Virus record (IMG/VR): IMGVR_UViG_3300044691_000371
Span: 20,827 to 84,826 of that record
Strand: one strand, 5' to 3'
Length of the DNA stretch: 64,000 nucleotides
DNA from: a virus
Shown here: positions 12,087 through 64,000 of the stretch, in pieces
Layout: each line of letters begins with the position of its first letter
Position numbering within the stretch: the stretch's first letter is position 1
The notes under the pieces: generated by a model
The model's database searches: none
Told to the model about the DNA's origin: nothing
Seen by the model: only the letters and a program-made list of their open reading frames with translations
Program-made: the position numbers and the translations under genes

Positions 12087-13538
12087 TTAGAACGTTACCG
12101 CCTTTATTTCGTTGATTAACGCTTGTTTGTCGGTCTCTAACATCGCCATGGTTTGGAATATTTTGTCGCTGAAACCGGCTAAACAAAATACTTTACTTTC
12201 AGGAAATTGCATTGTGCCTAATCCAGCAAGATCAAACGAATATATGAATGGATTTGCGCCAAATTTTTTATTGTACTCTGATAATGGCACTTTAGGTGAA
12301 TAGTAACCAATCCATCCTTGCATATCGCTAAAGATTAAAACACGTTCATATTTTTTATTAGCGTTTTTAAATATGGAATGAAAGTTCGTTCCGTGTCCAA
12401 CTTTGTTTTGACGTGTAAAATTAGCTGCGAAATCCATTGAATGTTGCGATAACTGATAATGAATGTAACGTGCAAAGTCTCCAAATTCCATTATATCAGC
12501 ATTAATTGCCTTTGCTAAAACTATCCCAAACAAAGCCCCTAATTCCGATTTTTTCATGTGCTTTGAGTTTGAAACTAAGCTATCCATCGACCCGGAATTG
12601 TCAACTGCAACTAATGTATTGCCGTCAAAGTTCAGCGTTTTAATGTTATTACAGCTTATATCGACCGCCTCACTTAATGCCTGTGTTATTTGACGTGCTT
12701 CTTTAGTGCCCAATGCTGAAAACTGTTTGTAAGCTATCAAATATTGAAACGGAAATATCAGCGACTTTTTAATGAACGATTCGCTTGTCAATGATGCCAA
12801 TGCCTCTGTTAAAACTTCCGGTGCTTGTGTCATGATGTTTGACAGGTTACGAAGCAAAGCCAAATAACCTATTTTCTTTTCACGTACAAGGTTAATCCAA
12901 ACTTCTTTTTTGGCGTTCTCAACATTATCACTTTGCCCCGCTGCTGTTAAACCTGATTCCCACGTATCAACTGATTTCAGCGTACCGTTTACTAATGCCT
13001 TAATTGCTTCGGCGTTTTTTTCAACTGGTGTAGGGTGAACGATATTAACAACGTCAACAAGTTTTATTGCGTTCTTTTCGCCGCGGTATTTTGCCAGCTG
13101 GTATCCATCAAACTTTTCAAACGCCAATGCAAAGCCGCCTTTCATAGCGTTGGTTACTTTCCCGTTGTTGGCTTTGTGGTACGACAAAATTTCTGTCATA
13201 TCATCCGGCCTGTAAATAACTGCATTGTAAAAAGCCTTTGCCCAATCATAGCCGCCGACCTGTATAGCTAATTCAGATGCAGCAACGTGGCTGATCGAAC
13301 GCATACCGTATTTTGTACGTGCGTAAACGGCGGCTTGTGCAACGAATTTAGGATTGCATTGAGTAATTAAAGTTTTCAATCTCGTTAATGTATCGTTTGA
13401 TTTTTCGTAAAATCCATCGCTTACAAATGAAGTAAGCAATATTGATACTAACTCTAATTCGGCAGATTGCTTGTGTGATTGCCCACCTGCTTTGTTTTCT
13501 ACAAGTGCTGTAGATTCTGTTTTTGTGTTAAACTTCAT
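12087..13538 (-). CDS. rsr: Ro60 / TROVE-domain RNA-binding protein
   Basis: 483 residues. Residues 1-280 form the TROVE HEAT-like ring (AELELVSILLTSFVSDGFYEK, ISHVAASELAIQVGG, RPDDMTEILSYH, ALAFEKFDGYQLAKYRG); residues about 305-480 are a von Willebrand A domain with an intact MIDAS (VDNSGSMDS). Family members bind Y RNAs on the outside of the ring and ends of misfolded RNAs in its centre, and work with exoribonucleases. Bacterial members (Rsr, and Bacteroides Ro60) lie next to Y RNA genes, and here four Y-like modules lie immediately upstream. Ends in a terminator at 12030. Confidence 0.93.
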   Translation of the reverse strand: MKFNTKTESTALVENKAGGQSHKQSAELELVSILLTSFVSDGFYEKSNDTLTRLKTLITQCNPKFVAQAAVYARTKYGMRSISHVAASELAIQVGGYDWAKAFYNAVIYRPDDMTEILSYHKANNGKVTNAMKGGFALAFEKFDGYQLAKYRGEKNAIKLVDVVNIVHPTPVEKNAEAIKALVNGTLKSVDTWESGLTAAGQSDNVENAKKEVWINLVREKKIGYLALLRNLSNIMTQAPEVLTEALASLTSESFIKKSLIFPFQYLIAYKQFSALGTKEARQITQALSEAVDISCNNIKTLNFDGNTLVAVDNSGSMDSLVSNSKHMKKSELGALFGIVLAKAINADIMEFGDFARYIHYQLSQHSMDFAANFTRQNKVGHGTNFHSIFKNANKKYERVLIFSDMQGWIGYYSPKVPLSEYNKKFGANPFIYSFDLAGLGTMQFPESKVFCLAGFSDKIFQTMAMLETDKQALINEIKAVTF

Positions 13539-32014: not shown

Positions 32015-32848
32015 TTATTTCTTTTTGAATAAGTCTAACTGCTTTATAATTCCAGGTTTATCAGGATATAATTGTTTTTCAGGTTTGATATTTAAGCCAC
32101 ACATTTCTTGGCATGTTGAACATTTTCCAAAATATGTTTTAGGATTAAATTTACTCATTAAAGTGTTTTTACCTAAAAACTTTGACTTTTTTACGTTAAT
32201 TATTCCGTTTGTAACAAGTTCATTATGTGGATTAACTCTTAAAACCGTGTCTAACGTAGCTTCGTTTTTAAACAGTTCTGATTGAACTTTAGCTAACTTA
32301 TGGCCTATTTCATTATCCATATTAAAATCAGCTGATACAACCCTTAAAACTGACTTACAATAGCTTTTAATCCTATTATATTGCTCAATGCTATTTTTCA
32401 ATAATTCCGGCTTATCAAGTGCTGAAACACTTGTGTTGATACAAACGTTTATTGTACTTAAAAACTGTAAATGTTCATCAGTTAAGTTGGTCCAGTGCTT
32501 TGTTATTATTACAATTTCCTTGTTTGCGTGACAAATTATTTTACAAATATTAATCGTATGCTCCCAGTTTTCTGATGGGTCGCCACTACATCCTATCCTA
32601 ACAAAATCAAGTTTTATTTTACTTATTTGCTGTATAACCTGTCTTTCGTGCCTTTTATTGTCGAAATATCTTAATACTGTTTTGCTGAAATCGTACCCGT
32701 ATAATTTAGCTGATTTTGCTGCGTAACAGTCATTATAACAGCCACCTTTTTCATTTGACATTCCACTTTCACAACCAATTGTAGTGTCTAAGCAGTAAAC
32801 GCCACGGTCATTTTTAGATAAGGCTATTCGACTTGAATAAAGTTTCAT
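32015..32848 (-). CDS. Radical-SAM-like Cys-cluster protein
   Basis: 277 residues. N-terminal cluster CYAAKSA preceded by GGCYND (Cys 37 and 41, with C19 and C26) and C-terminal CSTCQEMC (Cys 243/246/250) indicate two iron-sulfur-like sites. DFVRIGCSGDPSENWEHTI and IVIITKHWTNL are consistent with a TIM-barrel. Similar phage proteins (gp37/DUF5131-like, CxxxCYA) are radical-SAM relatives. Overlap by four bases with the methyltransferase suggests a joint role, possibly DNA base modification. Confidence 0.65.
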   Translation of the reverse strand: MKLYSSRIALSKNDRGVYCLDTTIGCESGMSNEKGGCYNDCYAAKSAKLYGYDFSKTVLRYFDNKRHERQVIQQISKIKLDFVRIGCSGDPSENWEHTINICKIICHANKEIVIITKHWTNLTDEHLQFLSTINVCINTSVSALDKPELLKNSIEQYNRIKSYCKSVLRVVSADFNMDNEIGHKLAKVQSELFKNEATLDTVLRVNPHNELVTNGIINVKKSKFLGKNTLMSKFNPKTYFGKCSTCQEMCGLNIKPEKQLYPDKPGIIKQLDLFKKK

Positions 32849-34287
32849 AACCTGCCTATTGATGGGTACGACTCTTTAATTTTAGTCATATCACCTTTAT
32901 AGGCAACGATTATTTTTTGTTCCTGCTTTGGAAATTTGCGATAATGAAGTGTTTTTTTAGCGTGTGATAATCTGGTAAATGCCCCCTCAACGTAAACAAT
33001 TTTATTGTAAACAAATAGCCCGTTGTTTTTAAAAAACAATTCGTGTTCTGATTCGCAACAATAATAAGCCCCATCTTTATCGCGGCTATCTCCTGTCATT
33101 ATAACAAAAAAACAATTATCGTTTAATACCTCAATTGCTTTTTTATAACCGGCAAATAAAGTATCTCTAAACTCTTCGTAAGTAGGGATTGAATTTAATT
33201 CCCCTATGGGCGGTTTGCCGTCATAGTCTAAATATTCCTCAACTTTATAGTAAGGGGGGCATGAAAAAACAAGATCGTATTTTTTGTCTGGTTTAAAGGT
33301 TGAGCTATCCGATTTAAACCATTTTACATTTTCAAAATCCTGGCATAACGCATTGTTAGCATCGCATTGGTTTTGCCTTATTTCTGATGAAAGATATTCA
33401 TATCCGTTTGCTCCGGTAACGAAACCCATTTGAACACCACCGCCAAATGGATTATAAACACTTGTGCCGTTAGTTGGCATAAAGAAGCGTAATATAACCT
33501 CACAGGCAACTGGGTCAAGTACGGAGGCGTTGCCGTTAAACGATTTGCCTTTGTTGTGCTGTACGTTGCCATCTTCATCAATTGTATGATTGGCTAAAAC
33601 AACGTTTGACATACCATTTTTACCCTGCCAACATCCATCCCGTGAAGCAAACTTTGGATTTTCAATATTATATTTTGCCCCGGCTGCTTCTATTTTTTCG
33701 TTCCATTCTTTTTTCATTTTCAACCAATCGCCTTTAGTCGAGTTCCATACATTTGTCATTGTTGCATGGGCTAACCTTTTCATTCTTACTTGTTCTAATT
33801 GGCCGTAAACCATGTAAGAATAACCGCTTAAATTGAGATACTCTTTAAACCCGATGGCAGCAAATACTTTTGGATTTTCGAGGTCATGTTTTTGACTTAC
33901 GGTCATAATCATAGGATAGCCAAAGGTATTTTGCTTTATGATTTCGCCGACCATATCGCTATAAATCGCTTTGTATTTTTTGTTTAAATCCATAGCCGAT
34001 TGAAGCAAGCAAAACTCTTTTGCTTCGTGGTTGATCTGATATGTGAAAAACCCTGAAAAAGCATCATTCAACTTAAAAATAATAGCTGAATGTATCTGCA
34101 TGTTTTTACGAGCAGCCCGGTAAGCAACCCCGTCCTCAACTGCTAATTTAGCAACCTGTTCTTCATACCCTGAACCTATGACAGATTCTACATTTATAAA
34201 TTCAATTTTATCGGCGAACATTATCGTTTGCTTTTTATTTATAGGCTCAATAATTATTTCGTCTTCGAAAATTAGTTGTTGTTTCAT
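32845..34287 (-). CDS. DNA methyltransferase (SPPY-type amino-methyltransferase)
   Basis: 480 residues. NPFGGG (279-284, SAM-binding motif I) and SCPPYY (342-347, motif IV) with the order typical of N4-cytosine/N6-adenine DNA methyltransferases. N-terminal 165 residues are a separate domain that looks like a GNAT fold (AAIGFKEYLNLSGYSYMVYG), so the protein may be a fusion. The target sequence cannot be told. It may protect phage DNA from host restriction or form one step of a larger modification. Confidence 0.85.
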   Translation of the reverse strand: MKQQLIFEDEIIIEPINKKQTIMFADKIEFINVESVIGSGYEEQVAKLAVEDGVAYRAARKNMQIHSAIIFKLNDAFSGFFTYQINHEAKEFCLLQSAMDLNKKYKAIYSDMVGEIIKQNTFGYPMIMTVSQKHDLENPKVFAAIGFKEYLNLSGYSYMVYGQLEQVRMKRLAHATMTNVWNSTKGDWLKMKKEWNEKIEAAGAKYNIENPKFASRDGCWQGKNGMSNVVLANHTIDEDGNVQHNKGKSFNGNASVLDPVACEVILRFFMPTNGTSVYNPFGGGVQMGFVTGANGYEYLSSEIRQNQCDANNALCQDFENVKWFKSDSSTFKPDKKYDLVFSCPPYYKVEEYLDYDGKPPIGELNSIPTYEEFRDTLFAGYKKAIEVLNDNCFFVIMTGDSRDKDGAYYCCESEHELFFKNNGLFVYNKIVYVEGAFTRLSHAKKTLHYRKFPKQEQKIIVAYKGDMTKIKESYPSIGRL

Positions 34288-49838: not shown

Positions 49839-50462
49839 TTAATCAAATTTATAGAATGCAAAAATACCTTCATCGGTCGGGTCTTGTTCAGCTATCTTTT
49901 TAGCTAATGTCATTAATGTACCATTGCAAGCCTTGAAACCTTTGTCAATGTATTTTGTAAGGCGTTTTAAACTATCAACTGGATGTGGCAATTCATTAAT
50001 AACTAATTTCATTTTTAATAAATCCATTGGTGCTGATACGTGATAATAAAACTTTTCAAAGTTGACAGCAAAGCAACAAACGGTAAAATCAAATTTTTCT
50101 ATGCAGTCTATAGGATTTTGAAATGGCTTTTTAACAATGTCAATATCAAATTTTTTATCATTTATTGTAATATAGCCTTTAATTGCATTCTTAGTAATTA
50201 GATAATGTTTGTATGAACGATTATTTCTAAGCCACCTTACTAAGTCTGCCATTGCTTTTCTATCTTCACAAAAAAAATCAATATCTGTGCGTTTAGATGC
50301 GTGAAACCAATCCCTAACTGAACCACCTGCAATCCATATTTTACGGTTTAAATCTTCATTCATGTGATTGAAATAATATGAACGAAAATGAGATATAACG
50401 TTTGTTGCTTGTGGCATTAAGGTTTGTCCCTCTTCTAATGAAATAACTTCAAATTTGTTCAT
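49839..50462 (-). CDS. Pol-beta-type nucleotidyltransferase (polyA polymerase head-like)
   Basis: 207 residues from ATG 50462. WIAGGSVRDWFHASKRTDIDFFC is the GGSVRD-xx-DxD signature of polyA-polymerase/CCA-type enzymes; the C-terminal helices (SAPMDLLKMKLVINE) continue it. May add nucleotides to RNA or act on phage nucleotides. An upstream start at 50519 overlaps the preceding gene more. Confidence 0.75.
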   Translation of the reverse strand: MNKFEVISLEEGQTLMPQATNVISHFRSYYFNHMNEDLNRKIWIAGGSVRDWFHASKRTDIDFFCEDRKAMADLVRWLRNNRSYKHYLITKNAIKGYITINDKKFDIDIVKKPFQNPIDCIEKFDFTVCCFAVNFEKFYYHVSAPMDLLKMKLVINELPHPVDSLKRLTKYIDKGFKACNGTLMTLAKKIAEQDPTDEGIFAFYKFD

Positions 50463-50757
50463 AAACTTTTTTTCTAAGATAACAAACTGGTATGCTTTCA
50501 ATAAAGCCTGATTTTTCATATCGGTGCGCTGGTGTGATTGCTTCTGCCTTTAAAAGCGTTTCGTACATTCCTTCGTTTTCGCTCCAATCTTTAATTGCAA
50601 TTTCTTCTTTTAAAAGTCCTGGCAAATTAACTGATGCTTTGGCAACTAAATTATCATATATCGGCAGGTCGGTTCCTATCAATTTTAATGCTACGTTCCC
50701 ATCTTGATACATTCCAGTTTCAAGCGAACAATTCCATTGTTTAAATTTTACTTCCAT
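50449..50757 (-). CDS. Unknown phage protein
   Basis: 102 residues, beta-rich start KFKQWNCSLETGMYQDG, helical end. Unknown; overlaps the nucleotidyltransferase. Confidence 0.5.
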   Translation of the reverse strand: MEVKFKQWNCSLETGMYQDGNVALKLIGTDLPIYDNLVAKASVNLPGLLKEEIAIKDWSENEGMYETLLKAEAITPAHRYEKSGFIESIPVCYLRKKVYEQI

Positions 50758-52658: not shown

Positions 52659-53189
52659 TTAAATCTTTTTAATAATTCCGGTAACCGCCCCGCCAGAAAA
52701 AAAAGCGTATACCTTAACCACCAAAAAAACTACTATAAGAAATATAGCTCCGATTGCAGTCCACATCCATAAATTACGCCCGTGTTCGGTATCGCTTAAT
52801 TTTTGTTGAGCCTTTAAATTATCGCTATTGGCTTGTTGTGCTGAAAGTGTACAAGCTGATAAAGCCCGGTTATCTGGGATTGTATCCCTAATTGTAACCG
52901 TATTTGTGATCGTATGTCCAGGTAATGTAATTGTTTTTGTTATAAAGACAGTATCGTGCCTTAAAACGGTATTTGTAATAGTATTACCGGCTATTATCGA
53001 TGTGTCATGCTTGATTAGCGTGTCAGAGCGAAGTTTTCCGGTAAAGCAAGGGTATATCTCATTTGATAGTCTTGAAGCCTCTGTTGGGTTTTGTATAAAC
53101 AAAGCATCCAACCTTTTAATTGGATTGCAACTAAACAAAATAAGCCCGATTATTATCAGGCTTAAATTTATTTTAAAATTATTTTTCAT
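52659..53189 (-). CDS. Candidate unimolecular spanin (lipoprotein plus membrane anchor)
   Basis: 176 residues. N-terminal lipoprotein signal LSLIIIGLILFSC and a C-terminal membrane segment WTAIGAIFLIVVFLVVKVYAF are both present in one chain, the layout of u-spanins, which join outer and inner membranes at lysis. The middle has ITNTVTIRDT-type strands. It follows the holin and lysozymes. Confidence 0.7.
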   Translation of the reverse strand: MKNNFKINLSLIIIGLILFSCNPIKRLDALFIQNPTEASRLSNEIYPCFTGKLRSDTLIKHDTSIIAGNTITNTVLRHDTVFITKTITLPGHTITNTVTIRDTIPDNRALSACTLSAQQANSDNLKAQQKLSDTEHGRNLWMWTAIGAIFLIVVFLVVKVYAFFSGGAVTGIIKKI

Positions 53190-53425
53190 ACGCCCTTATC
53201 TGTCTTCGCGGATGTTGTAACAACCGAAGCATCATTTTTACTGTTAAGCACTGTGCCCCCTGTGGTGTTATAATCTTTTGCGAAATATCCTAAAGCTGCG
53301 ACTATAACCGCACCAATTAGATTTTTCCAATCAGTTGAAAAATTAAAAGTACCGTTTGAAATGATCGGCTGTATAGCTAACCATAAGGCACCTATAATGC
53401 CGATAATTGTTGTTTTGTTGTTCAT
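53186..53425 (-). CDS. Holin candidate
   Basis: 79 residues with two hydrophobic segments (IIGIIGALWLAIQPIIS and LIGAVIVAALGYFA) and polar ends; small size and position between endolysin and spanin support a holin. Overlaps the spanin gene as ATGA. Confidence 0.65.
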   Translation of the reverse strand: MNNKTTIIGIIGALWLAIQPIISNGTFNFSTDWKNLIGAVIVAALGYFAKDYNTTGGTVLNSKNDASVVTTSAKTDKGV

Positions 53426-53437
53426 CTTTTATGTTTT

Positions 53438-54100
53438 TTAATTAATGTTTGCTAATTTTTGTAAGGCGGTAATATCACCATTAAAGTAATTTATATCAAG
53501 TTCGCCGCCTGTAAGTGATCCGTCTTGTTTTCCCCGCTCTGAACATTGCCAAAACAGCCAATTATTAAATCCTTGTGGCAGTTTAGGTACATGATCCTGA
53601 TAACCAGCAATCCATAGATCATAAATCCCGAAAGGTTTTGAATCGCCTAAATATTCCTGTAAGAAGTTAGGTGAACAATAAACAATTGGCTTGCGGCCTG
53701 TTCTCGTTTGTGTAAGTTCCAAAAGCTTTAAAGCATTATCGCGACATTTTGATTTATTCATCAAAATATATGTATCAAGTTTTCTACTTTCTTGTGGTGT
53801 TTTTCCGACCTGATTCTCAACATCAATGACAGGAGGCAATACACCGCGTGCAGACCAATCAACATTTCTGTTAAGAAAATTATCGGCTTGTTTAATAGGA
53901 TCAGATTGCGCTACCCAAAAATCATAGGTTCCTGTCAATAACCCTTTTTCAGTTGCCGCTTTCCAATTAGTCTGAAAAGCGGGATCGTGGAAAGTTTCAC
54001 CCTGTGCACCCTTTAGGAAACAGTATTTAAAAATAGCTGCTAATAATTTCCAATTAATATTAACTGAATGATTTATGTCGAATCCTAATGGATTATTCAT
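53438..54100 (-). CDS. GH25 lysozyme (endolysin)
   Basis: 220 residues. GFDINHSVNI with Asp 8, FLKGAQGETFHDPAF, GTYDFWV, and PPVIDVEN (D93, E95) are the catalytic set of GH25 muramidases; C-terminal NNWLFWQCSE and GGELDINYFNG complete the barrel. It cleaves peptidoglycan at lysis. Confidence 0.92.
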   Translation of the reverse strand: MNNPLGFDINHSVNINWKLLAAIFKYCFLKGAQGETFHDPAFQTNWKAATEKGLLTGTYDFWVAQSDPIKQADNFLNRNVDWSARGVLPPVIDVENQVGKTPQESRKLDTYILMNKSKCRDNALKLLELTQTRTGRKPIVYCSPNFLQEYLGDSKPFGIYDLWIAGYQDHVPKLPQGFNNWLFWQCSERGKQDGSLTGGELDINYFNGDITALQKLANIN

Positions 54101-54101
54101 T

Positions 54102-54866
54102 TTAATTTGCTTTAATAACCTGTGTAGGATCGAAACCCAAATTTTTAATCAATTGCTGAAGTGTAACCATTCTTTTTGTCAGCATAGATTGATTTTCACT
54201 TTTATTATTTGGCATCCAATAGCATGTCATTGTACCGCCATATTGAAGTATTTTGTAATAAAATGTCGGTTCGGTGTCAGTTATTTTGCCATCTGTAAAA
54301 GTCGCTTCACTTCCAAATGTTCCTACCCATTCGTTAACATCCATTTTTTGTAAAAGTGTACGCGTAATATTTTCAGTTGCAATTTCAGTCCCTACGTTTT
54401 GGCCTTGTGATTCCATTGCGGCATTGAAAGTATAGGTATCCGAAAATATTGCTGCATCTTGACACCATGCGTTTACTATCCAGCAATTGTTATGTCCTTT
54501 TGCTATCTCATCACCTTTTGGTTTTACTATCTTATTTGCCGCTACATATACCTTATCTTCGTTTGGTTGCCCCACAACTGAACTCCATGCTGCAAATACT
54601 CCCGTACGTGGTAATTTTAAGGTTTTAACTTTAGCATAATTAGCTGCTGTTAATTTTTCAAATGTTACTAATGGCATATGTCTTTCTGTATCCGCAATAG
54701 AAGTGTAAAATGGATTAACCCAAATTTTACATGCTTTACAAAAATTGCTTTTTTTAGTTGGATATTTAGCGTATAAAGCTTTTACATAAGCTGCATTATA
54801 TGTTTGAGCGACTGAAATTTGCCACAAACTTGAAATAGCAATCAATAAAATCAAACTTATTTTCAT
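54102..54866 (-). CDS. Secreted DNA/RNA non-specific nuclease-like protein
   Basis: 254 residues. Signal peptide LLIAISSLWQISVAQ; DTERHMPLVTFE (DRGHM-type site, with HM retained), KGHNNCWIVNAWCQ and the QGQNVGTEIATE region match the order of the NUC family (NucA-type). Probably periplasmic; its DRGH motif is altered, so activity is uncertain. Between two endolysins. Confidence 0.6.
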   Translation of the reverse strand: MKISLILLIAISSLWQISVAQTYNAAYVKALYAKYPTKKSNFCKACKIWVNPFYTSIADTERHMPLVTFEKLTAANYAKVKTLKLPRTGVFAAWSSVVGQPNEDKVYVAANKIVKPKGDEIAKGHNNCWIVNAWCQDAAIFSDTYTFNAAMESQGQNVGTEIATENITRTLLQKMDVNEWVGTFGSEATFTDGKITDTEPTFYYKILQYGGTMTCYWMPNNKSENQSMLTKRMVTLQQLIKNLGFDPTQVIKAN

Positions 54867-54933
54867 AACTTTTTTTGTTAAAATTACGCTAAAAGTTTTT
54901 ATAATTAAAAATAAAATTTTTATTGAAAAAAAA

Positions 54934-55482
54934 TTACGATTTATAAGGTTTCAATCTCGATAGCCAACTATTTAAAAATTGTGCCTGATGTGGGTGAGTT
55001 GCAAGCTTTCTATAAAATTCCTCTCGCAATGAATTATATCTATTATACAAATCAGGCTGTTTTGAGGTGTTTATAGCAACGATCGTTTTTTGACCTATTA
55101 TACTATCACTTATTACATTTGATGCTTCCTGAATCATTTTAGCTGCCTTTATAGTACCTGAATTTACACCAAAATCATAACAGCTATCTGCAAGTTGTTG
55201 GTCGTTTAACTGATCGAGTTTATTTACATCCCAAAAATTAGTTTTGTAGAACGAATAAACTAATGATTGCAAAATTAAATCTTGTTTAGCCCATTGGTTT
55301 ATTGTACCATCATCCGTTCCGTGAATATTTTTGATTGAATCTATATGATACCATCCTTGCCAATTAGGCCAGTTATTTCTTGAAATTCCTGCATAAGTCT
55401 CCCCTCCATGATCTGATTGGTTATTTGAATAGCCACCCTCATTAATTCCTGTTAAATGTTCTGCTTCATTAAAATTTGCCAT
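54934..55482 (-). CDS. GH108 N-acetylmuramidase (endolysin)
   Basis: 182 residues. EGGYSNNQSDHGGETYAGIS (Glu 15, then conserved GGETYAGIS) is the GH108 signature, with the peptidoglycan-binding C-terminal half (DFGVNSGTIKAAKMIQ). Second endolysin beside GH25; may be virion-borne or have another timing. Confidence 0.92.
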   Translation of the reverse strand: MANFNEAEHLTGINEGGYSNNQSDHGGETYAGISRNNWPNWQGWYHIDSIKNIHGTDDGTINQWAKQDLILQSLVYSFYKTNFWDVNKLDQLNDQQLADSCYDFGVNSGTIKAAKMIQEASNVISDSIIGQKTIVAINTSKQPDLYNRYNSLREEFYRKLATHPHQAQFLNSWLSRLKPYKS

Positions 55483-55672: not shown

Positions 55673-55954
55673 TTATTTCATTTTTAAAATAGCCTCGTTT
55701 TTTGCTTCTATACTTTTTTTGAGTTCCTTAATTTCATCTTTAAGATCATCCATTTCCTTTTCATACCGTAATTCAATCCTTACCCTTTCCGATTTTATAC
55801 CCTCTATTTCCTTGTCCCGATCTTTAATTATATTAATATTTATACTGCTATTAACAAGGTAATTGAATACGCCTATTAATCCAGCCCCGCCAAAACATAC
55901 GCCTAATGTTGCCACTATAATTGACCACCAATCTAACATCATAATTATAGCCAT
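55673..55954 (-). CDS. Membrane-anchored coiled-coil protein
   Basis: 93 residues; N-terminal segment WWSIIVATLGVCFGGAGLIGV, then a long Glu/Lys coiled coil. Resembles lysis-cassette or signalling accessory proteins. Unknown. Confidence 0.6.
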   Translation of the reverse strand: MAIIMMLDWWSIIVATLGVCFGGAGLIGVFNYLVNSSININIIKDRDKEIEGIKSERVRIELRYEKEMDDLKDEIKELKKSIEAKNEAILKMK

Positions 55955-55966
55955 GTCTTAAAGTTA

Positions 55967-56494
55967 TCATTTTTGTGGAAGGTTAGAAAGTGCATTTGCT
56001 TTAAAAAGTATTTTTTGATTTACACGGTCGAGTGCGCTTTTCATGTCTGCCTGCCAATCTGTATCGTTTTTATCAACGACATCAAAAACGCCAGTTCGTA
56101 AAAAGTCTTTCATGTTTTTAATATCCAAATAGCCCGAAACTATGATTATATAAATACCTGGGAAAAATTTATGTAAATAGGTAATCATTTCAATAATGTT
56201 ATAATCCATAAACCCAGGCAAGCTAATATCGAGCATCACTAATTTTACTTCGTTTGTAATAGCCCTCTTAAATTCATTAGGATTATTAAAACTTTGCACA
56301 TTGTACATATTTTCAATATTAAAAAATTTATTGAAAAATTCTTCAACTGTTGGATCATCGTCCAATATTAAAGTTATTATTTGCTGTTGTTTTAAGACCA
56401 CAAATTTGCCCTCCAATGCTTTGTTTATTTCCGAAAGCCTATCTTGTGCATCAAGCTTAATTATCCATTCTGATGCTAGTTTAATACCTTCCAT
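55967..56494 (-). CDS. CheY-like receiver domain protein
   Basis: 175 residues. ILDDDP (D45-D47), VMLDISLPGF (phospho-acceptor D89), IVSGY (S120) and DVVDKND (K142) are the full receiver set. A 38-residue helical N-terminus precedes it and no output domain follows. Could tap the host signalling network. Next to a membrane coiled-coil gene. Confidence 0.85.
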   Translation of the reverse strand: MEGIKLASEWIIKLDAQDRLSEINKALEGKFVVLKQQQIITLILDDDPTVEEFFNKFFNIENMYNVQSFNNPNEFKRAITNEVKLVMLDISLPGFMDYNIIEMITYLHKFFPGIYIIIVSGYLDIKNMKDFLRTGVFDVVDKNDTDWQADMKSALDRVNQKILFKANALSNLPQK

Positions 56495-56760
56495 TACTTT
56501 AATTTAATATGATATTTTTTCTCTATAAATGGCTTTAAACTGTCTGCCTGTCGCCTACAGGCATCTGTATCGCTTTTTCTTTGAATATATTGCCATTTAT
56601 CGTAATAGTAGGCAGCCTTTTTATCGTTAAACATAAGGCTGTAATAGCTATAAATAGTGCTGTATTTTTGAATACTATCACAATAATTATATTTATTTTG
56701 TGCGTTTAATTGTACCGAAAACGGTATAATTAAAACAATTATAATTAGTATTTTTTTCAT
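56494..56760 (-). CDS. Exported protein
   Basis: 88 residues with signal peptide IIIVLIIPFSVQLNAQ, Tyr-rich mature part (YSYYSLMFNDKKAAYYYDKW). Overlaps the receiver gene by one base. Unknown. Confidence 0.6.
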   Translation of the reverse strand: MKKILIIIVLIIPFSVQLNAQNKYNYCDSIQKYSTIYSYYSLMFNDKKAAYYYDKWQYIQRKSDTDACRRQADSLKPFIEKKYHIKLK

Positions 56761-56762
56761 TT

Positions 56763-59714
56763 TTATTGATAAGCTATTTTAAGTTCGTTAATACCCAATT
56801 GCACACCATATGATGAGCTGCCCCAATCAAAGGACATACGTATATATTTAGGGTAATTTAAATTAGCAGTGCCATCAAAAATAGGCTGTACGCTTGTTAA
56901 TTGTGTTCCATATAAATCTATATTAATATACACACTTGTTGAGTTATACTTTGCAATTACAAATTTATTATATCCGTAACCAGTTGAGCCAACGAAGTTA
57001 GAATGATTGTAAGGCCCGTTGCTTACACCATTAAAGCCTAAAGTAAAGTTTCTGAATGGCTTTAAAGTAGCTATTATTTTATTATTGTTGTCAAGTATGT
57101 CGATATGGTACTGATCGTTAGATGTGCCGACAACCGAATTAAATGCCAGCCTAGATAAATCAATTAAACCGCTTACCTGCCACTGTGAACACGCCGTTAT
57201 TAATGGAGTTGACACCTGTACATAATAATGTGAACCTGCTCCGGCATGCGATCCTAACATAATAACGTCAGGACTTCTGCCAAGTTCGCAGCATACTGCG
57301 CTTCCTACGGTTGATTTAAATTGATCTCCGCTGTTTGTGAAATATTCAGCAGGTGAAACAGTCCATCCCGGTTTACCTTGTGGGGACTGCCCGGCCACCA
57401 ATGCAGATAAAAGATCAATCTGATTAGGTATAATTGGCAAAACCCTGTTCGTAAGCTTAACATTTGTTGTTTGCTCATTTACTGAACTTAAGTTGTCAAG
57501 TGTCCAGCGGTGAAAGCCTCCGTGTGCACTTTCTTCGTTAGTGTAAATTTCTATCTTACTTGCAACTTGAACCGGTCGAAGTGTTTGTGAGTTATTGGCA
57601 TAGCCGTAAGGCGCATCCATATTAGTTACCTGCGGCCCTAGAAATCCAAATTGCGTTAACACCAGTCCTTCATCGTTTGTTACGGTAATGATGCTGGTTT
57701 GGCTATTTTTCCAAAATTCTCCGTGATATCCGAATATGTACCAGTTTTGTATCGAATTAACATCGTTGCCAGGCTGTTGTACACTATTACCAATATCAAA
57801 AAATTGCGGCTTTGGAAATAGGCCTTTATACGCTATAAATGTTTCGTACAGGGTTTTAAACTTAAACCTGCTGTTGGCTATGTCATATCCTGAAATATGA
57901 AATAATTTACTTGGGCCGGTAGCATTTGAACTTCCGTACAGGCCTAAAATTCCCGAATTTGAAATGGCCCAATTCGAATTACCGCTTGCAACATCAGTAC
58001 CTAATACCATACTTGCCGCTGTTGTTGCAGATGCAAAGGTTGGATTATTACTACCGTCAAAACCGGTTAATCTTAGTTTGTTATAGTTAAGAACCCGGGT
58101 AGGATAACTGCCTGTTGCAGTCCTGTAATATACGCTACCCGTACTATCAATCTGTGAGCCTGACGGTAGTACTGAATTTATCAATCTAAAGCCTGTTGAT
58201 GTTAATTCAACATAGTATGGATGGTTGCTATCCTGCTGTACAAGGGCATATCGTTTACCATTTGATGCCAATAAAATTCTTGTTACTGGTTGTGTTCCAC
58301 CCCATCCTGCTGGAAACGCATACCCGTAATTATTTGTTAATGCCCAGCCCGAAGCAAGTGGTTGTGAATAATCAATAGTGTATTCCGCAAGGTTTTGAAA
58401 TACCTGTGTGGGTTGGTTCATTACTGTATTAACATTGTACAGCCTGGGCTGCGTCATAATGTTATTGATATACGACCCGGTCTTATCAAAGTGCTGATAG
58501 CGCCAGTTGCCGACATCACCTATCCATAACGAGCTATCCGATTGGTGCGTTATAAAAACAGGTAAATAACCGCGGGTATCGTTGAAATAAAATTTGGTAT
58601 TGGTAACTGTTGGCGAGGTTGAATAATCAACCCCTACTGTGCCAATAGTGCTTATTGATGCAAGTGTAGTGGTATTGTATTGCTTTACAACTTGTTGATC
58701 TAAGACAGATAGCTTACCCGCGTAAACATCGGCGCCCATAATATGAGTAAAGCCACTAATAATGCTACCTGTGGCAGTGAGAGTGCCATCTGAATTTACA
58801 GTATACTTATTTTCTGTTGTGCCGTTGGAGACCCAAAGCGTGTTATCGTTCTCTAAGTTTAAATTATCCGGAGAGGTTATAGCATCCGTTCTGATTAAAG
58901 CCCCTGTAGCGCCGTTTAAAACATCGATCTTATTTTGTAAAGCGTGAGCAACCAAAAGGTATTTACTTCCTCCTTGCTGTACGGCCATGCCTGTAATACG
59001 TCCTGTTGCACCTAATGTATTAGCATCAATTGCGTGATTAAAAATACGCATCGGGGAAATATTAACTACTGTCCCGGCTGAAAAAGCTACTTCAGCATCA
59101 TTAGAAACTGCGGTAGCCCAAATGAAGTTTGTTCCTTGATTATAATCGCGGCCACCGTAATAAACATTGGTCGAGTTTGCGCAAATAAAATAGCCGCTCA
59201 TTCCTGTATTTATACCCGGTACTACGTTTATTTTTACATTTGGCGCAGATTTTAAAACTTTAAATAACCCCTGATGATCCCTTTCGCTAAAAGTGGCCAG
59301 GCCGTACATGTAATTGCCAACTTCAACCATACCGCTTATAGTGCCGTAGTAATAATGAACAGTAGCACCTGTATCTGAAAGTGAGGTGTTACCTATAATT
59401 CCATCCCATGTATTGGTAATATTATTTTCTAAAATCTTAACTTGGTATGTGGTGCCGATTGTTAACAGATTACCTTTATCGTCCAATCCATCCCATTGTA
59501 ATGTATGTGGGCCAGCTTCAAAATGTTCTTGAGCGAATAATGTTCTAACTAAAATACCGTTACTGTATACTCCTGCTGACACATTACCACTTGCGCTGAA
59601 ATTTAATGTATAAGTATTGGGTAGAGTTTTGTTAACCGGTAAAGTTGATTGCGCATTTGCTATAAAATTTGCATATATGCAAAAAAACAAGCATATGTAG
59701 AGTAATTTTTTCAT
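56763..59714 (-). CDS. Large exported beta-propeller-like protein
   Basis: 983 residues from ATG 59714 (an upstream TTG is less likely). Signal peptide MKKLLYICLFFCIYANF-type, then FlgD-like Ig region (SAGVYSNGILVRTLF, LQWDGLDDKGN), followed by repeated strand blocks (LLVAHALQNKIDVLNGATGA). C-terminal lectin-like RMSFDWGSSSYGVQLGI. Probably an exported or surface/host-recognition protein; a secreted tail-region protein is unusual. Confidence 0.65.
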   Translation of the reverse strand: MKKLLYICLFFCIYANFIANAQSTLPVNKTLPNTYTLNFSASGNVSAGVYSNGILVRTLFAQEHFEAGPHTLQWDGLDDKGNLLTIGTTYQVKILENNITNTWDGIIGNTSLSDTGATVHYYYGTISGMVEVGNYMYGLATFSERDHQGLFKVLKSAPNVKINVVPGINTGMSGYFICANSTNVYYGGRDYNQGTNFIWATAVSNDAEVAFSAGTVVNISPMRIFNHAIDANTLGATGRITGMAVQQGGSKYLLVAHALQNKIDVLNGATGALIRTDAITSPDNLNLENDNTLWVSNGTTENKYTVNSDGTLTATGSIISGFTHIMGADVYAGKLSVLDQQVVKQYNTTTLASISTIGTVGVDYSTSPTVTNTKFYFNDTRGYLPVFITHQSDSSLWIGDVGNWRYQHFDKTGSYINNIMTQPRLYNVNTVMNQPTQVFQNLAEYTIDYSQPLASGWALTNNYGYAFPAGWGGTQPVTRILLASNGKRYALVQQDSNHPYYVELTSTGFRLINSVLPSGSQIDSTGSVYYRTATGSYPTRVLNYNKLRLTGFDGSNNPTFASATTAASMVLGTDVASGNSNWAISNSGILGLYGSSNATGPSKLFHISGYDIANSRFKFKTLYETFIAYKGLFPKPQFFDIGNSVQQPGNDVNSIQNWYIFGYHGEFWKNSQTSIITVTNDEGLVLTQFGFLGPQVTNMDAPYGYANNSQTLRPVQVASKIEIYTNEESAHGGFHRWTLDNLSSVNEQTTNVKLTNRVLPIIPNQIDLLSALVAGQSPQGKPGWTVSPAEYFTNSGDQFKSTVGSAVCCELGRSPDVIMLGSHAGAGSHYYVQVSTPLITACSQWQVSGLIDLSRLAFNSVVGTSNDQYHIDILDNNNKIIATLKPFRNFTLGFNGVSNGPYNHSNFVGSTGYGYNKFVIAKYNSTSVYINIDLYGTQLTSVQPIFDGTANLNYPKYIRMSFDWGSSSYGVQLGINELKIAYQ

Positions 59715-59716
59715 GA

Positions 59717-60100
59717 TTAATTCCAACTATAAACGCCAGCTGAATTACTGATCGTTCGTAAATAAGATCCTGCCGTTGCCGGTATTGCGTTATTAACTTG
59801 CCCGTTTAATTGCACCGTCCAGCTACCTGTTAACACAAAAATAACACTTCCGCCGCTTCCTAAAGGTATGTTATTTTCACTAAAACTTAAATTGGCGGTT
59901 ACTGTTACTGTTTTATTTGGCGTTATAGGCTTATAAGGCTCATTCATTATAGGCTTAAAGGTTAATACCTCTGGTGTTATATCAATAGTTACTCCACTGC
60001 TTGACGTTCCGTTTACTACTATTTTAGCAAATGATTTTACAGCTATACCTTGTGAGTAAGATATTAATGGTATAAATAATATGATTAATAGCCATTTCAT
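59717..60100 (-). CDS. Exported protein
   Basis: 127 residues, signal peptide LLIILFIPLISYSQG, then Ser/Thr/Val-rich strands. Unknown; in the tail-fibre operon. Confidence 0.6.
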   Translation of the reverse strand: MKWLLIILFIPLISYSQGIAVKSFAKIVVNGTSSSGVTIDITPEVLTFKPIMNEPYKPITPNKTVTVTANLSFSENNIPLGSGGSVIFVLTGSWTVQLNGQVNNAIPATAGSYLRTISNSAGVYSWN

Positions 60101-60121: not shown

Positions 60122-60478
60122 TTACTGTAGTACAATCCTCTTTTTATTTATAAAGACATCTAATTTAGTTATTAGCTGTGTCCACTTATTAAAATTTCCG
60201 TCCGGGTATATTTGGTAAGTTGAGTTTAAATATCCTCCGTTACGGTCATAAAACATTATTTCCAAAGGCGAATTAGTCGTTGTATCGCGCATAACCGTTA
60301 ATCGATACACAATAGATCGTGCAGTATCATTCCCTCCTGAAACAATCATTGGTACACATTGCCTGGCACCTGGTTGTATCCAAATAAAATCGCCCTGTAC
60401 ACTTTGTATACGCGTTGCTTGTGAAAATGCTGCGATAGCTACTATCAGCAGTGCAATTGTTATGATAAGTTTTTTCAT
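60122..60478 (-). CDS. Exported protein
   Basis: 118 residues, signal peptide MKKLIITIALLIVAIAAFSQ-type; mature part RIQSVQGDFIWIQPGARQ and strands. Its start overlaps the tail-fibre stop as ATGG-type. Unknown. Confidence 0.6.
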   Translation of the reverse strand: MKKLIITIALLIVAIAAFSQATRIQSVQGDFIWIQPGARQCVPMIVSGGNDTARSIVYRLTVMRDTTTNSPLEIMFYDRNGGYLNSTYQIYPDGNFNKWTQLITKLDVFINKKRIVLQ

Positions 60479-63400
60479 GGTGTAATATTATAATCAAAAT
60501 TTATGCTTCCTGTTAATGCAGTTACAAAAGTAACATCGAATGTTGTTGTTGTTTGAGCAGATATATAGTAATTAACCGCGGTTAATAAATCACGTGGCGT
60601 TATGGTAACATTGTAACTATTATTGGCCAGTGTGCTACCTATTGTAACCGTGACAACCGTTGTCGCAGTTCCAGTCGTAGTTGAATTTCCGTGAATTGGA
60701 GGATTTCCTTGCCTTACTATTATACCGGCTGTGGCTGATGTAAATATAATCCTAAATTGTCCAACTAATCCAGCTGTAGTAGATAACGATCCTAATGATG
60801 TAAAACCGCTGCCCAATGCAAGTGTTACCGTATTGGCTCCTGCGCTATTATCTATATAGAAATCAAAAACATATCCCTGCCCTGCTGAATTTAACTGCGT
60901 AGCCATGGCGGTAGCTGTAGGCATTGTAATCGTTGTTGCGGCGGCTGAGGTTGATGTTATATATCTTGTTCCTATTTGAGCAGCTGTAGCTGTGGCCGTA
61001 GAATTAATAGCAGTAAGTGTATTTGAATATGATACTGGAGCGCTTGCAAAGAAATTTGTCGTATTCCACTGCCATAAAACTTTTACGAATGTTTGACTAA
61101 CACCTGCCGCATTATATCCACCTCCCCATAGATCACCGCTTGACAGATTTCCGATACCACCATAATTACTCCCGTTCATGGCGTACGACATCGCCGAATG
61201 AGGTGTACTGTATATACCAAGTCCTAAAATACTACCATTCTGAACGCTGAGGTTTCCATTAGTGATACCAACAGCGGTACCAGCCGCTGAAAAAGTATTA
61301 GTCTGTGTCCATGTATTTGGAGTGGTTAACCCTGCTGTATTTTCACCAGCTATATAAAAGCTCCATGATGTCGCGCTAGTGCCAGACGTTAAAATACATG
61401 TTAAAATACATATCTGCCCTTGTGTTAATGTAGCAATAGCATTAAGCCCTGATGATTGTATAACAATATTTATACCAGTGCCGTTATTGGCAATAATGAA
61501 AGTTTGGTATTGCGCCAATGTGCTTACAACAGGCAGCACGTAAGTTTGTCCGCCTAATGTGGAGCCTATTAATGATTGATATTGCGATGACGCTGCCGTT
61601 AAGGTCGTTGTTCCGCCTGCGGATGTTGTTGTCGTGCCGTTTGATATAAATGAATTTCCACTAATATTTGCATTTGCATCTCTGATTGGTATATAAGATG
61701 CGGTTGGCGCGGTAGATGCCGTTGCTAAATCTGAATTAGTAACCAAAGATGAACTTACTACGCCGGACGCGTTTGCATGCAACAATCCCGCCCCATATTT
61801 TGAAAATGTTACAGTGCCATCGTTGGCGATGGTAAACCATGACGTAGTTGTGCTTGCGTTATTTGCTTTCGTATAAAAATCAAGTTGACCACCTAAATCT
61901 GTAGCTGTTGAGCCAACGGCCGAGACAGACATTCCGGCCATGTAGGTATATGCTGGCGTAGGCCTCGTATACGCCCATCCGCTAAAACCACCTATTAAAT
62001 CACCGGTATTATTTATAGATGGCGATCCAGGAGTTCCCCGCGATGTTGAAACCGTATATCCTGGGGTAACAGTTCCGTTTGTAACACTTCCCATAGCTGA
62101 ATTAAGCTGAAAAGCATCGTATTGCCCGTAAACATTTACCGCATTAGTGGCTGTAATATCTCCGTTATTATTTATATATAAACGATGGTTAGTGCCATCG
62201 AAATAAAAATTACTATTATCCTGGGTAATTGTAGTGCCATTTGAAAAAAGTATGGAATGGTTTGTTAATGATGGCAATGTAAATTTATTATTCCATGTGG
62301 TAGATGAAGATATAGATGCGTCAGGTATTAACCTACTTTCAAGTGCATATGTACCGGCACTATCAGGAACAAGTTGTATCCTGTTTGCAGTTAGCAAAGA
62401 CTTACTTACAGTCCAATCAAATCCATTTGAACCTTTTACTGAAAATCTACCGCTGGCGTCTGCAAAAATATAGTTATGCCCACTTGGCGGAGTTGTTGGG
62501 TCTGTTGATTGTGTTGCTAAGTCGATAAAACCAGTTCCAGCTGTTCCATTAATTGCGATACTATTTGGTATTAATTGTCCTGAAAATGAGTTTCCAGCAG
62601 TTGCCACGGTTTGCAATGTAGGCGTACTTCCATTCGCCGAATAATTCACATCCCAACTCGCGGCTGTTGTTCCAGATGTGCCGTTAAAACGAAATGTTGC
62701 CGACGTACCTGCTGCCATAGCTTGCACAGTATTACCGCCGCTTGATTGAACCGTAACAACCCCAGTCGAATAATTACTTCTTTGAAATGTATACCCTGTT
62801 ATAAGAGTTAAAACAACAGGCAATACTAGTGTTTGTGTAGTTGTTCCTGTAAAAGAACCGTTTTTAGCGGATGATACTAAAAGTGTAGTTGTTGAACCTG
62901 ATGTTACTATCGATTGGTAATTCTCAATTAAATTATTTATAAATGAATTTGCATTGCCGTCCCTAACCATTACATTAAATGCAGTTGCGGTTGTTTCAAA
63001 GCCTGGCCCTGCGGTATTTAATACATATGGATCAGGAATGGTACCAGTACCAGTAAATGTTCCAGTAAGGAAATTAGCCGCATTACTCGTATAAACTAGA
63101 GCTGTTGTCCCGATAGTAATAGTAGATGTAGTGGTTTGTGTAAATGTTACGCCTATATATAAAGTACCCAATTGTACATAAACCTTCGATCCGGCTGCAA
63201 GATTGGCGGCTGTGTTTGAATTTGGGTCACGTGTTAAAATGTATGGGTGTGAAGCATCTCCGACTTGAGTTGCATCATATACACCATCGTTTGCTTGTGT
63301 TGCTTCATTCCAAACTAAAATCTTATCATTAACCGATGGCGTTGCACCATCAACAGATATAGCCCCGTTGCTATTACCTGTTAATGTAGCCCCGATACCT

Positions 63401-64000
63401 GATGAACCGTTATTATAAGTATTTGATAATAGCGCCGCTGTGGTAGCGTATTTAGCCACCGTGTAAGAACCACCATTTGAAAATGGCAAAATACCTGTAA
63501 ATGTTATATTTGGCGTCGTACCACCGCTGGATGCTATATTTCCTGAACCAGTAACTGAAGAAACACCACCTCCCCCTCCCAATCTTCTTGTTACCCATTC
63601 ATTAGTAACATAAGCTTTTGGCGTGGCTGTAATCTGTGCGGTATCAACGGAGACATCCGCCTTTAAACCTATATGAGTATTTTCGTCTGTGATAGTTACC
63701 GGTAAGGCATCATTAAATGTTATTTCCGTATTATGATTTGTATTGACATTTAGAGCTTGAATAGTTATTCCACCATTTGAATTTCCGTTTGCGCTTACTC
63801 CATAAAAATGATTATAACCTGCATCGGTAGCATCCATTATTACATCTGCTAGTCCATTTACACTATTAAAGTAAAAACCATTACTATTAGGATCTTGTAC
63901 TTGAAATGTTGTTGGTGAACTACTTCCTAATAAATTAAAAGTAGTAGTAGTTCCCGCGGTTATGTTTACAATCCTGCTTGTGTTTACAGTTCCATTAATA
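60475..64000 (-). CDS. Long tail-fibre-like protein (5' end cut by window edge)
   Basis: At least 1174 residues, the frame runs off the right edge (the in-frame ATG at 63837 is internal). Ser/Thr/Gly/Asn-rich, low aromatic content, with repeated domains of the LVLPVVLTLITGYTF / YVLPVVSTLAQYQTF type, both followed by VQSSGGN/IQSSGLN, and a third FDFYIDNSAGAN copy. Such decoration domains are typical of tail fibres and baseplate proteins. Contacts the host surface. Confidence 0.75.
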   Translation of the reverse strand, partial: INGTVNTSRIVNITAGTTTTFNLLGSSSPTTFQVQDPNSNGFYFNSVNGLADVIMDATDAGYNHFYGVSANGNSNGGITIQALNVNTNHNTEITFNDALPVTITDENTHIGLKADVSVDTAQITATPKAYVTNEWVTRRLGGGGGVSSVTGSGNIASSGGTTPNITFTGILPFSNGGSYTVAKYATTAALLSNTYNNGSSGIGATLTGNSNGAISVDGATPSVNDKILVWNEATQANDGVYDATQVGDASHPYILTRDPNSNTAANLAAGSKVYVQLGTLYIGVTFTQTTTSTITIGTTALVYTSNAANFLTGTFTGTGTIPDPYVLNTAGPGFETTATAFNVMVRDGNANSFINNLIENYQSIVTSGSTTTLLVSSAKNGSFTGTTTQTLVLPVVLTLITGYTFQRSNYSTGVVTVQSSGGNTVQAMAAGTSATFRFNGTSGTTAASWDVNYSANGSTPTLQTVATAGNSFSGQLIPNSIAINGTAGTGFIDLATQSTDPTTPPSGHNYIFADASGRFSVKGSNGFDWTVSKSLLTANRIQLVPDSAGTYALESRLIPDASISSSTTWNNKFTLPSLTNHSILFSNGTTITQDNSNFYFDGTNHRLYINNNGDITATNAVNVYGQYDAFQLNSAMGSVTNGTVTPGYTVSTSRGTPGSPSINNTGDLIGGFSGWAYTRPTPAYTYMAGMSVSAVGSTATDLGGQLDFYTKANNASTTTSWFTIANDGTVTFSKYGAGLLHANASGVVSSSLVTNSDLATASTAPTASYIPIRDANANISGNSFISNGTTTTSAGGTTTLTAASSQYQSLIGSTLGGQTYVLPVVSTLAQYQTFIIANNGTGINIVIQSSGLNAIATLTQGQICILTCILTSGTSATSWSFYIAGENTAGLTTPNTWTQTNTFSAAGTAVGITNGNLSVQNGSILGLGIYSTPHSAMSYAMNGSNYGGIGNLSSGDLWGGGYNAAGVSQTFVKVLWQWNTTNFFASAPVSYSNTLTAINSTATATAAQIGTRYITSTSAAATTITMPTATAMATQLNSAGQGYVFDFYIDNSAGANTVTLALGSGFTSLGSLSTTAGLVGQFRIIFTSATAGIIVRQGNPPIHGNSTTTGTATTVVTVTIGSTLANNSYNVTITPRDLLTAVNYYISAQTTTTFDVTFVTALTGSINFDYNITP

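What the first reader, a model, noticed from the sequence alone, without database searches (positions are those of the whole stretch)
55967..56494. Phage CheY-like receiver protein
Seen: all key receiver residues (DDD, D89, S120, K142) and no output domain. Phage-coded receivers are rare. It lies between exported proteins and a membrane coiled-coil gene. Inferred: could sequester phosphate from a host sensor kinase or time lysis.
Basis: partly seen in the sequence, partly recalled or inferred. Interest (0 to 1): 0.6.

Follow-up and report, generated by a model that had tools for sequence, protein, structure and literature searches.

The report
Phage lone receiver beside lysis genes
A virus of (probably) a Bacteroidota bacterium carries one half of a bacterial signalling system, a lone phosphate-receiving protein, in the run of genes that ends in cell bursting; other, unrelated phages hold such a protein in the same place, which suggests (but does not prove) that phages wire host signals into the timing of lysis.

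Summary
The minus-strand ORF 55967-56494 (175 aa) is a stand-alone response-regulator receiver: Pfam Response_reg 1.6e-12; D45-D47, D89, S120 and K142 all present; AlphaFold gives a (beta-alpha)5 receiver fold whose best PDB match is Spo0F. The window is part of an 84.8-kb tailed-phage record with no histidine-kinase ATPase domain. No close relative was found. Its nearest relatives are Bacteroidota receivers that share an unusual K-N/D/G in place of K-P, so it probably came from a host. Phage receivers are not new: Alteromonas phages V22, A5 and P24 (published as 'CheY-like AMG') and R8W (published as 'PhoB') have them. New here: in V22, A5, two Foturviruses, siphovirus R9Y2, V19 and several metagenomic phages the lone receiver lies directly beside a small gene for an N-terminally membrane-anchored helical (coiled-coil) protein, usually inside the holin/endolysin/spanin cassette. 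The window has the same layout (fibres, exported P88, receiver, anchored coil P93, GH108 and GH25 endolysins, holin-like, spanin-like), though its receiver and coil protein are not demonstrably from the same family. Coil genes also occur without receivers: the receiver is an optional add-on. Best reading: a host-phosphorylated switch acting on late functions, most likely lysis. Mechanism inferred, not shown.

The parts
55967..56494 (-). Stand-alone receiver protein (175 aa): residues 42-143 Response_reg; D45/D46/D47, D89, S120, K142; long alpha5; helical low-confidence N-terminal extension (1-38)
55673..55954 (-). P93: N-terminal membrane segment (about 12-30) plus one long charged helix; next gene downstream, 12-nt gap; candidate partner (inferred)
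   Evidence: (phrog_9090 'membrane protein', 6e-4); the only such small N-anchored, highly charged protein found in the window
56494..56760 (-). P88: small exported protein, stop/start overlap (TAATG) with the receiver gene
54934..55482 (-). GH108 endolysin with peptidoglycan-binding domain
   Evidence: phrog_315 endolysin 1.8e-32
54102..54866 (-). Exported 254-aa protein, no family, no relative found
53438..54100 (-). GH25 endolysin
53186..53425 (-). Holin-like 79-aa membrane protein (weak similarity to phiLC3-type holin, below cut-off)
   Evidence: TIGR01598, 0.0017; hydrophobic segment
52659..53189 (-). u-spanin-like lipoprotein: N-terminal lipobox-like LILFSC and C-terminal membrane segment
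   Evidence: segments 5-24 and 145-164
56763..59726 (-). Large exported/fibre-like protein upstream in the same gene block
   Evidence: no PHROG
60475..63837 (-). Tail-fibre-like repetitive protein, upstream end of the block
   Evidence: no PHROG; weak match to L029

Best explanation
It is a phosphorylatable single-domain response regulator, taken from a Bacteroidota host, that the phage carries in its late tail-fibre/lysis gene block. No kinase is encoded, so it would be charged by a host histidine kinase or acetyl phosphate. It would act by protein contact, not on DNA: most likely the phosphorylation-dependent alpha4-beta5-alpha5 face (with the long alpha5) binds the helix of the membrane-anchored coiled-coil protein of the lysis cassette (P93), so that the physiological state of the host advances or delays lysis. 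Shown: receiver fold (predicted), intact active site, lack of output domain and of a HATPase domain, close packing with late genes, recurrence of this neighbourhood in other phages. Inferred: phosphorylation, binding to P93, any effect on lysis.
For: Receiver identity and intact site. No HATPase_c in the record while 14 of 14 control genomes ring. Operon-like packing: P88 stop overlaps the receiver start, 12 nt to P93, then endolysin. Same neighbourhood elsewhere: V22 and relatives (coil gene, receiver, overlapping Rz-like spanin, Rz1-like lipoprotein, holin-like); schitovirus A5 and L044; L047/L048/L049/L057 (coil gene overlapping the receiver, then lysozyme, Rz/Rz1-like); L063-L065; L094; Foturviruses R8W and H4/4 (holin, 1-TM gene, receiver); R9Y2 (coil gene, receiver, lysozyme with 4-nt overlaps). 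The window receiver is nearest to Bacteroidota receivers, not to the alteromonad-phage ones, so the shared neighbourhood looks like independent recruitment.
Against: P93 is not demonstrably homologous to the other phages' coil proteins (best pair with any receiver-linked one E = 0.045, with the receiver-less L071 0.005, in a 14-sequence comparison). Coil genes occur in lysis cassettes without a receiver (L092; L071; L004), so adjacency may only reflect a convenient insertion place. In V19 the receiver lost its phosphorylation residues. In L066 the receiver is not directly beside a coil gene. In the window the receiver precedes P93, elsewhere it follows the coil gene. P93 topology is unclear from flanking charges. 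No expression or interaction data.
Confidence: 0.4

Rival explanations
1. Decoy or diverter of host two-component signalling: the lone receiver takes phosphoryl groups from one or more host kinases (or feeds a phosphorelay) and so blunts or redirects a host response late in infection; its place near lysis genes is incidental.
For: Intact phosphorylation site without output domain; best fold match is Spo0F, a relay receiver; nearest bacterial relatives are receivers of Bacteroidota regulators, and two lone receivers that lie beside polysaccharide-export genes.
Against: Lies in the late fibre/lysis block, where a sink would come late; the same place in unrelated phages needs another reason.
Confidence: 0.25
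2. Auxiliary or host-recognition cargo: the receiver travels with tail-fibre modules and tunes host surface physiology (for example polysaccharide or secretion), as proposed for V22/A5/P24.
For: PMC10579305 reports the CheY-like gene as part of a host-recognition module shared by three distant phages; the window gene also follows fibre-like genes; lone Bacteroidota relatives lie beside polysaccharide-export genes.
Against: In R9Y2 and the Foturviruses the receiver is tied to lysozyme or holin and the coil gene; a surface change at the end of infection brings little obvious benefit.
Confidence: 0.2
3. Phosphorylation-independent structural or adaptor use of the receiver fold (pseudo-receiver-like), for example as a soluble subunit of a membrane complex.
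For: V19's receiver has lost Asp, Ser/Thr and Lys yet keeps its N-anchored neighbour.
Against: The window protein and 13 of 14 other phage receivers keep the catalytic set, which points to selection for phosphorylation.
Confidence: 0.1

Closest known systems
Alteromonas phage V22 gp30 / A5 gp11 / P24 CheY-like protein (PMC7289586, PMC10579305)
   Same: Lone receiver, no output domain, downstream of tail fibres; in V22 and A5 beside an N-anchored coil gene and next to lysis genes (last two points seen here; P24 locus not read here)
   Different: About 15-23% identity to the window protein; V22 and A5 keep K-P and have no N-terminal extension; their coil protein has a WFWYDK motif absent from P93; gene order coil-receiver, in the window receiver-coil
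Foturvirus R8W gp48 / H4/4 gp44 ('PhoB', PMC8228385) and R9Y2 gp12
   Same: Lone receiver after a 1-TM coil gene, beside holin (R8W, H4/4) or lysozyme (R9Y2; GH108-like start by eye)
   Different: Alteromonad phages; receiver 47-48% identical between these two phage groups but not close to the window protein; not PhoB, since no DNA-binding domain follows
Spo0F / single-domain response regulators (CheY, DivK)
   Same: Fold, active site, no output domain
   Different: Phage gene without cognate kinase; 21% identity in the fold alignment; K-N in place of K-P
Bacteroidota receivers with K-[N/D/G] (NtrC-like multi-domain, and lone ones beside polysaccharide-export genes)
   Same: Closest by sequence (24-33%), shared K-N/D/G
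   Different: Cellular; most carry an output region; no lysis context
cRec (cyclic-phosphate processing receiver of jumbo phages, PMC7824862)
   Same: Receiver-like fold with Asp residues in phages
   Different: Window protein matches canonical receivers better; no NAD/ADP-ribose genes beside it

Membership tests
Response regulator receiver domain (PF00072) | Profile match above the curated cut-off | tested here: met
   48 bits vs 30.2
Response regulator receiver domain (PF00072) | Acidic pair, phosphoacceptor Asp, Ser/Thr, Lys | tested here: met
   D45/D46, D89, S120, K142 aligned
Response regulator receiver domain (PF00072) | Lys-Pro after beta5 (usual, not strictly defining) | tested here: not met
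   K142-N143; absent also from the 12 Bacteroidota relatives examined
Response regulator receiver domain (PF00072) | (beta-alpha)5 fold | tested here: met
   AlphaFold pLDDT 74 overall, mostly 62-90 over the domain; Foldseek 1.2e-6 to Spo0F
Response regulator receiver domain (PF00072) | Phosphorylation on Asp | not testable with these tools
   needs biochemistry
Single-domain response regulator | No output domain | tested here: met
   only alpha5 and 5 residues follow beta5
V22 gp30-type phage receiver | Closer kinship to phage receivers than to cellular ones | tested here: not met
   groups with Bacteroidota receivers (support 0.94 for the clade with all Bacteroidota sequences, 0.31 at the inner node; short alignment; references chosen by similarity to the query)
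V22 gp30-type phage receiver | Adjacent N-anchored coil gene and lysis genes | tested here: met
   P93, GH108, GH25, holin-like, spanin-like genes
V22 gp30-type phage receiver | Coil protein homologous (WFWYDK motif) | tested here: not met
Complete phage two-component system | Histidine kinase in the same genome | tested here: not met
   no HATPase_c in the 84.8-kb record; the record may be incomplete
cRec | Linked to NAD/ADP-ribose processing genes | tested here: not met
   neighbours are fibres and lysis genes

The most novel reading that the evidence does not exclude
Unrelated tailed phages have repeatedly placed host-derived lone receivers beside membrane-anchored coiled-coil proteins of the lysis cassette, making a two-gene, kinase-less switch through which host two-component signalling gates phage lysis.
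Probability: 0.3. Interest if true: 0.8.

Novelty: new variant of a known kind. Interest (0 to 1): 0.5.

Why it matters
How phages sense host state to time lysis is an open question outside a few models (T4, lambda, N4). A phosphorylatable receiver in the lysis block, found in myo-, sipho- and podovirus-type phages, gives a direct test in already isolated Alteromonas phages. It also corrects annotations: R8W gp48 is not a PhoB transcription factor, V22 gp30 is not a hybrid kinase, and the gene overlapping V22's receiver encodes an Rz-like spanin.

Tried and rejected
Close relatives of the window receiver in viral and genome collections: none; phage records: one partial hit, MT836318, which is a bacterial polysaccharide gene cluster deposited as phage. 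Most Spo0F-like hits in 'phage' records look like bacterial contamination (Listeria, Acinetobacter, Salmonella contigs). cRec: rejected on context and fold. An encoded kinase: not found. P93 as homologue of the WFWYDK coil family: not supported. Positive-inside topology of P93: ambiguous. With the same hydropathy threshold the V22-, A5- and L047-type coil proteins do not reach a membrane call, so their N-terminal anchor rests on reading a short hydrophobic segment before WFWYDKK. The N4 'Receiver domain' (PMC12642591) is a name for a pinholin region, not a response-regulator domain. L050/L051 and L068: receivers without lysis context. Receiver searches in 33 viral records with a related endolysin or terminase: none has one.

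Full report
Observation. The finding is real. On the minus strand, 55967-56494 encodes 175 aa. Pfam finds one domain, Response_reg, residues 42-143, E = 1.6e-12; PDB sequence matches are CheY-like, NtrC and Spo0F receivers. AlphaFold on an alignment with phage receivers gives beta1 40-44, alpha1 48-60, beta2 64-68, alpha2 72-80, beta3 85-90, alpha3 97-110, beta4 115-120, alpha4 125-133, beta5 138-141 and a long alpha5 147-170; Foldseek's best PDB match is Spo0F (E = 1.2e-6, TM 0.81 on the target) and V22 gp30 ranks third among viral models. The active-site set D45/D46, D89, S120, K142 is complete. There is no output domain.

Genome. The window is bases 20827-84826 of an 84826-base virus record. 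It has a terminase large subunit, neck protein, endolysins and other phage genes, and no HATPase_c domain. Exported proteins of the window have signal peptides ending ...AQ and the one GH108 relative found in cellular genomes is in a Chitinophagaceae MAG, so the host is probably Bacteroidota (inference). GC of the receiver gene (0.31) is like its neighbours and the window (0.34), with no sign of recent entry.

Anatomy. Order of transcription: fibre-like 1120 aa, P118, P127, 987 aa, P88 (exported), receiver, P93, GH108 endolysin, 254-aa exported protein, GH25 endolysin, 79-aa holin-like protein, 176-aa u-spanin-like lipoprotein. P88 and the receiver share a TAATG stop/start; P93 begins 12 nt after the receiver. 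P93 has one N-terminal hydrophobic segment and then one long helix with 48% charged residues; among small minus-strand ORFs of the window it is the only protein of this make-up. Adjacency to it by chance would be about 2 in 100 genes over the genome, but about 2 in 11 within the late block (my estimate from the ORF lists), so adjacency in the window alone is weak evidence.

Relatives. No close homologue was found in viral contigs, genome contigs or phage records. In 395 Bacteroidia genomes the best matches are 24-33% identical receivers, mostly of NtrC-like regulators, some lone; two lone ones lie beside a polysaccharide-export lipoprotein gene. The 12 examined have K-N/D/G in place of K-P, as the window protein does, and group with it in a tree; the tree is short, one inner node is weak (0.31), and the references were chosen by similarity to the query, so this supports but does not prove a Bacteroidota origin.

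Recurrent neighbourhood. Literature gave V22 gp30, A5 gp11 and P24 CheY-like proteins, described as auxiliary genes in a host-recognition module. Reading the loci shows more. In V22 the gene before gp30 encodes an N-anchored helical protein, and gp30 overlaps an Rz-like spanin (phrog_4297, 7e-6) followed by an Rz1-like lipoprotein and a holin-like protein. The same order is in L041, L042, L043, L058 and L094 and, with an annotated endolysin, in the schitovirus A5. L047/L048/L049/L057, whose receivers are only about 26-30% identical to V22's, have the coil gene overlapping the receiver, then a Phage_lysozyme (3.7e-10), Rz/Rz1-like and holin-like genes. L063-L065: coil gene, receiver, endolysin-like, Rz/Rz1-like. 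Foturviruses R8W and H4/4: class II holin, one-TM gene, receiver. Siphovirus R9Y2: coil gene, receiver, lysozyme, with 4-nt overlaps. R9Y2 and the Foturviruses share both receiver (47-48%) and coil protein (E about 4e-10) although they belong to different phage groups: the pair is shared together. V19 keeps an N-anchored neighbour while its receiver lost the catalytic residues. One phage-like receiver, L066, lacks the adjacent coil gene.

Limits. The V22, A5, L047 and L094 coil proteins are one family, R9Y2 and Fotur another; so there are perhaps three or four independent coil families, not nine. P93 is not demonstrably related to any. Coil genes also occur in cassettes without a receiver: L092, of the WFWYDK family, directly before Rz/Rz1-like genes, the Chitinophagaceae prophage-like L071 and L004, whose order exported-coil-holin-spanin-GH108 resembles the window without a receiver. 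Hence the coil protein is probably a lysis-cassette part in its own right and the receiver an optional input. That fits a regulator, and it also fits a favoured insertion place.

Mechanism. With an intact phosphorylation site, no DNA-binding or enzymatic output, no own kinase found and a place in the late gene block, the simplest working model is a host-phosphorylated protein switch contacting the coil protein and shifting lysis timing. Every step after 'intact receiver in the late block' is inference. Confidence 0.4; decoy 0.25; host-recognition or physiology cargo 0.2; phosphorylation-independent adaptor 0.1.

Novelty. Phage receivers and their tail-fibre linkage are published. The link to the lysis cassette and the coil gene was not found in the library searched (open-licence papers only), and the window adds a divergent, apparently Bacteroidota-derived case: a new variant of a known kind.

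Noticed in passing
window 9573-12014 (-): The 813-aa terminase large subunit carries an intein-like insert (about residues 457-771; Intein_splicing 3.3e-5, ends ...HN|C); the relative L030 (78% identical) lacks it at the same place.
   Followed up: partly
window 12087-13538 (-): TROVE/Ro60-like RNA-binding protein (1e-16) next to the terminase gene.
   Followed up: no
window 53438-55482 (-): Two different endolysins (GH108 and GH25) in one lysis block.
   Followed up: no
window 49839-50519 (-): Nucleotidyltransferase / polyA-polymerase head-like phage protein (phrog_4400 1.7e-22).
   Followed up: no
window 32845-34287 (-): DNA methyltransferase-like protein (phrog_498) of the phage.
   Followed up: no
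L070 4437-4889 (-) (Alteromonas phage V19): Receiver-like protein that has lost the phosphoacceptor Asp, the Ser/Thr and the Lys but keeps an N-anchored neighbour gene.
   Followed up: partly
L038 (MT836318.1): Record deposited as phage is a bacterial polysaccharide cluster with a receiver-like region fused to a sugar transferase.
   Followed up: yes
L052 4992-5453; L039 10750-11199: Published annotations ('DNA-binding response regulator / PhoB', 'hybrid sensor histidine kinase') do not fit: both are lone receivers.
   Followed up: yes
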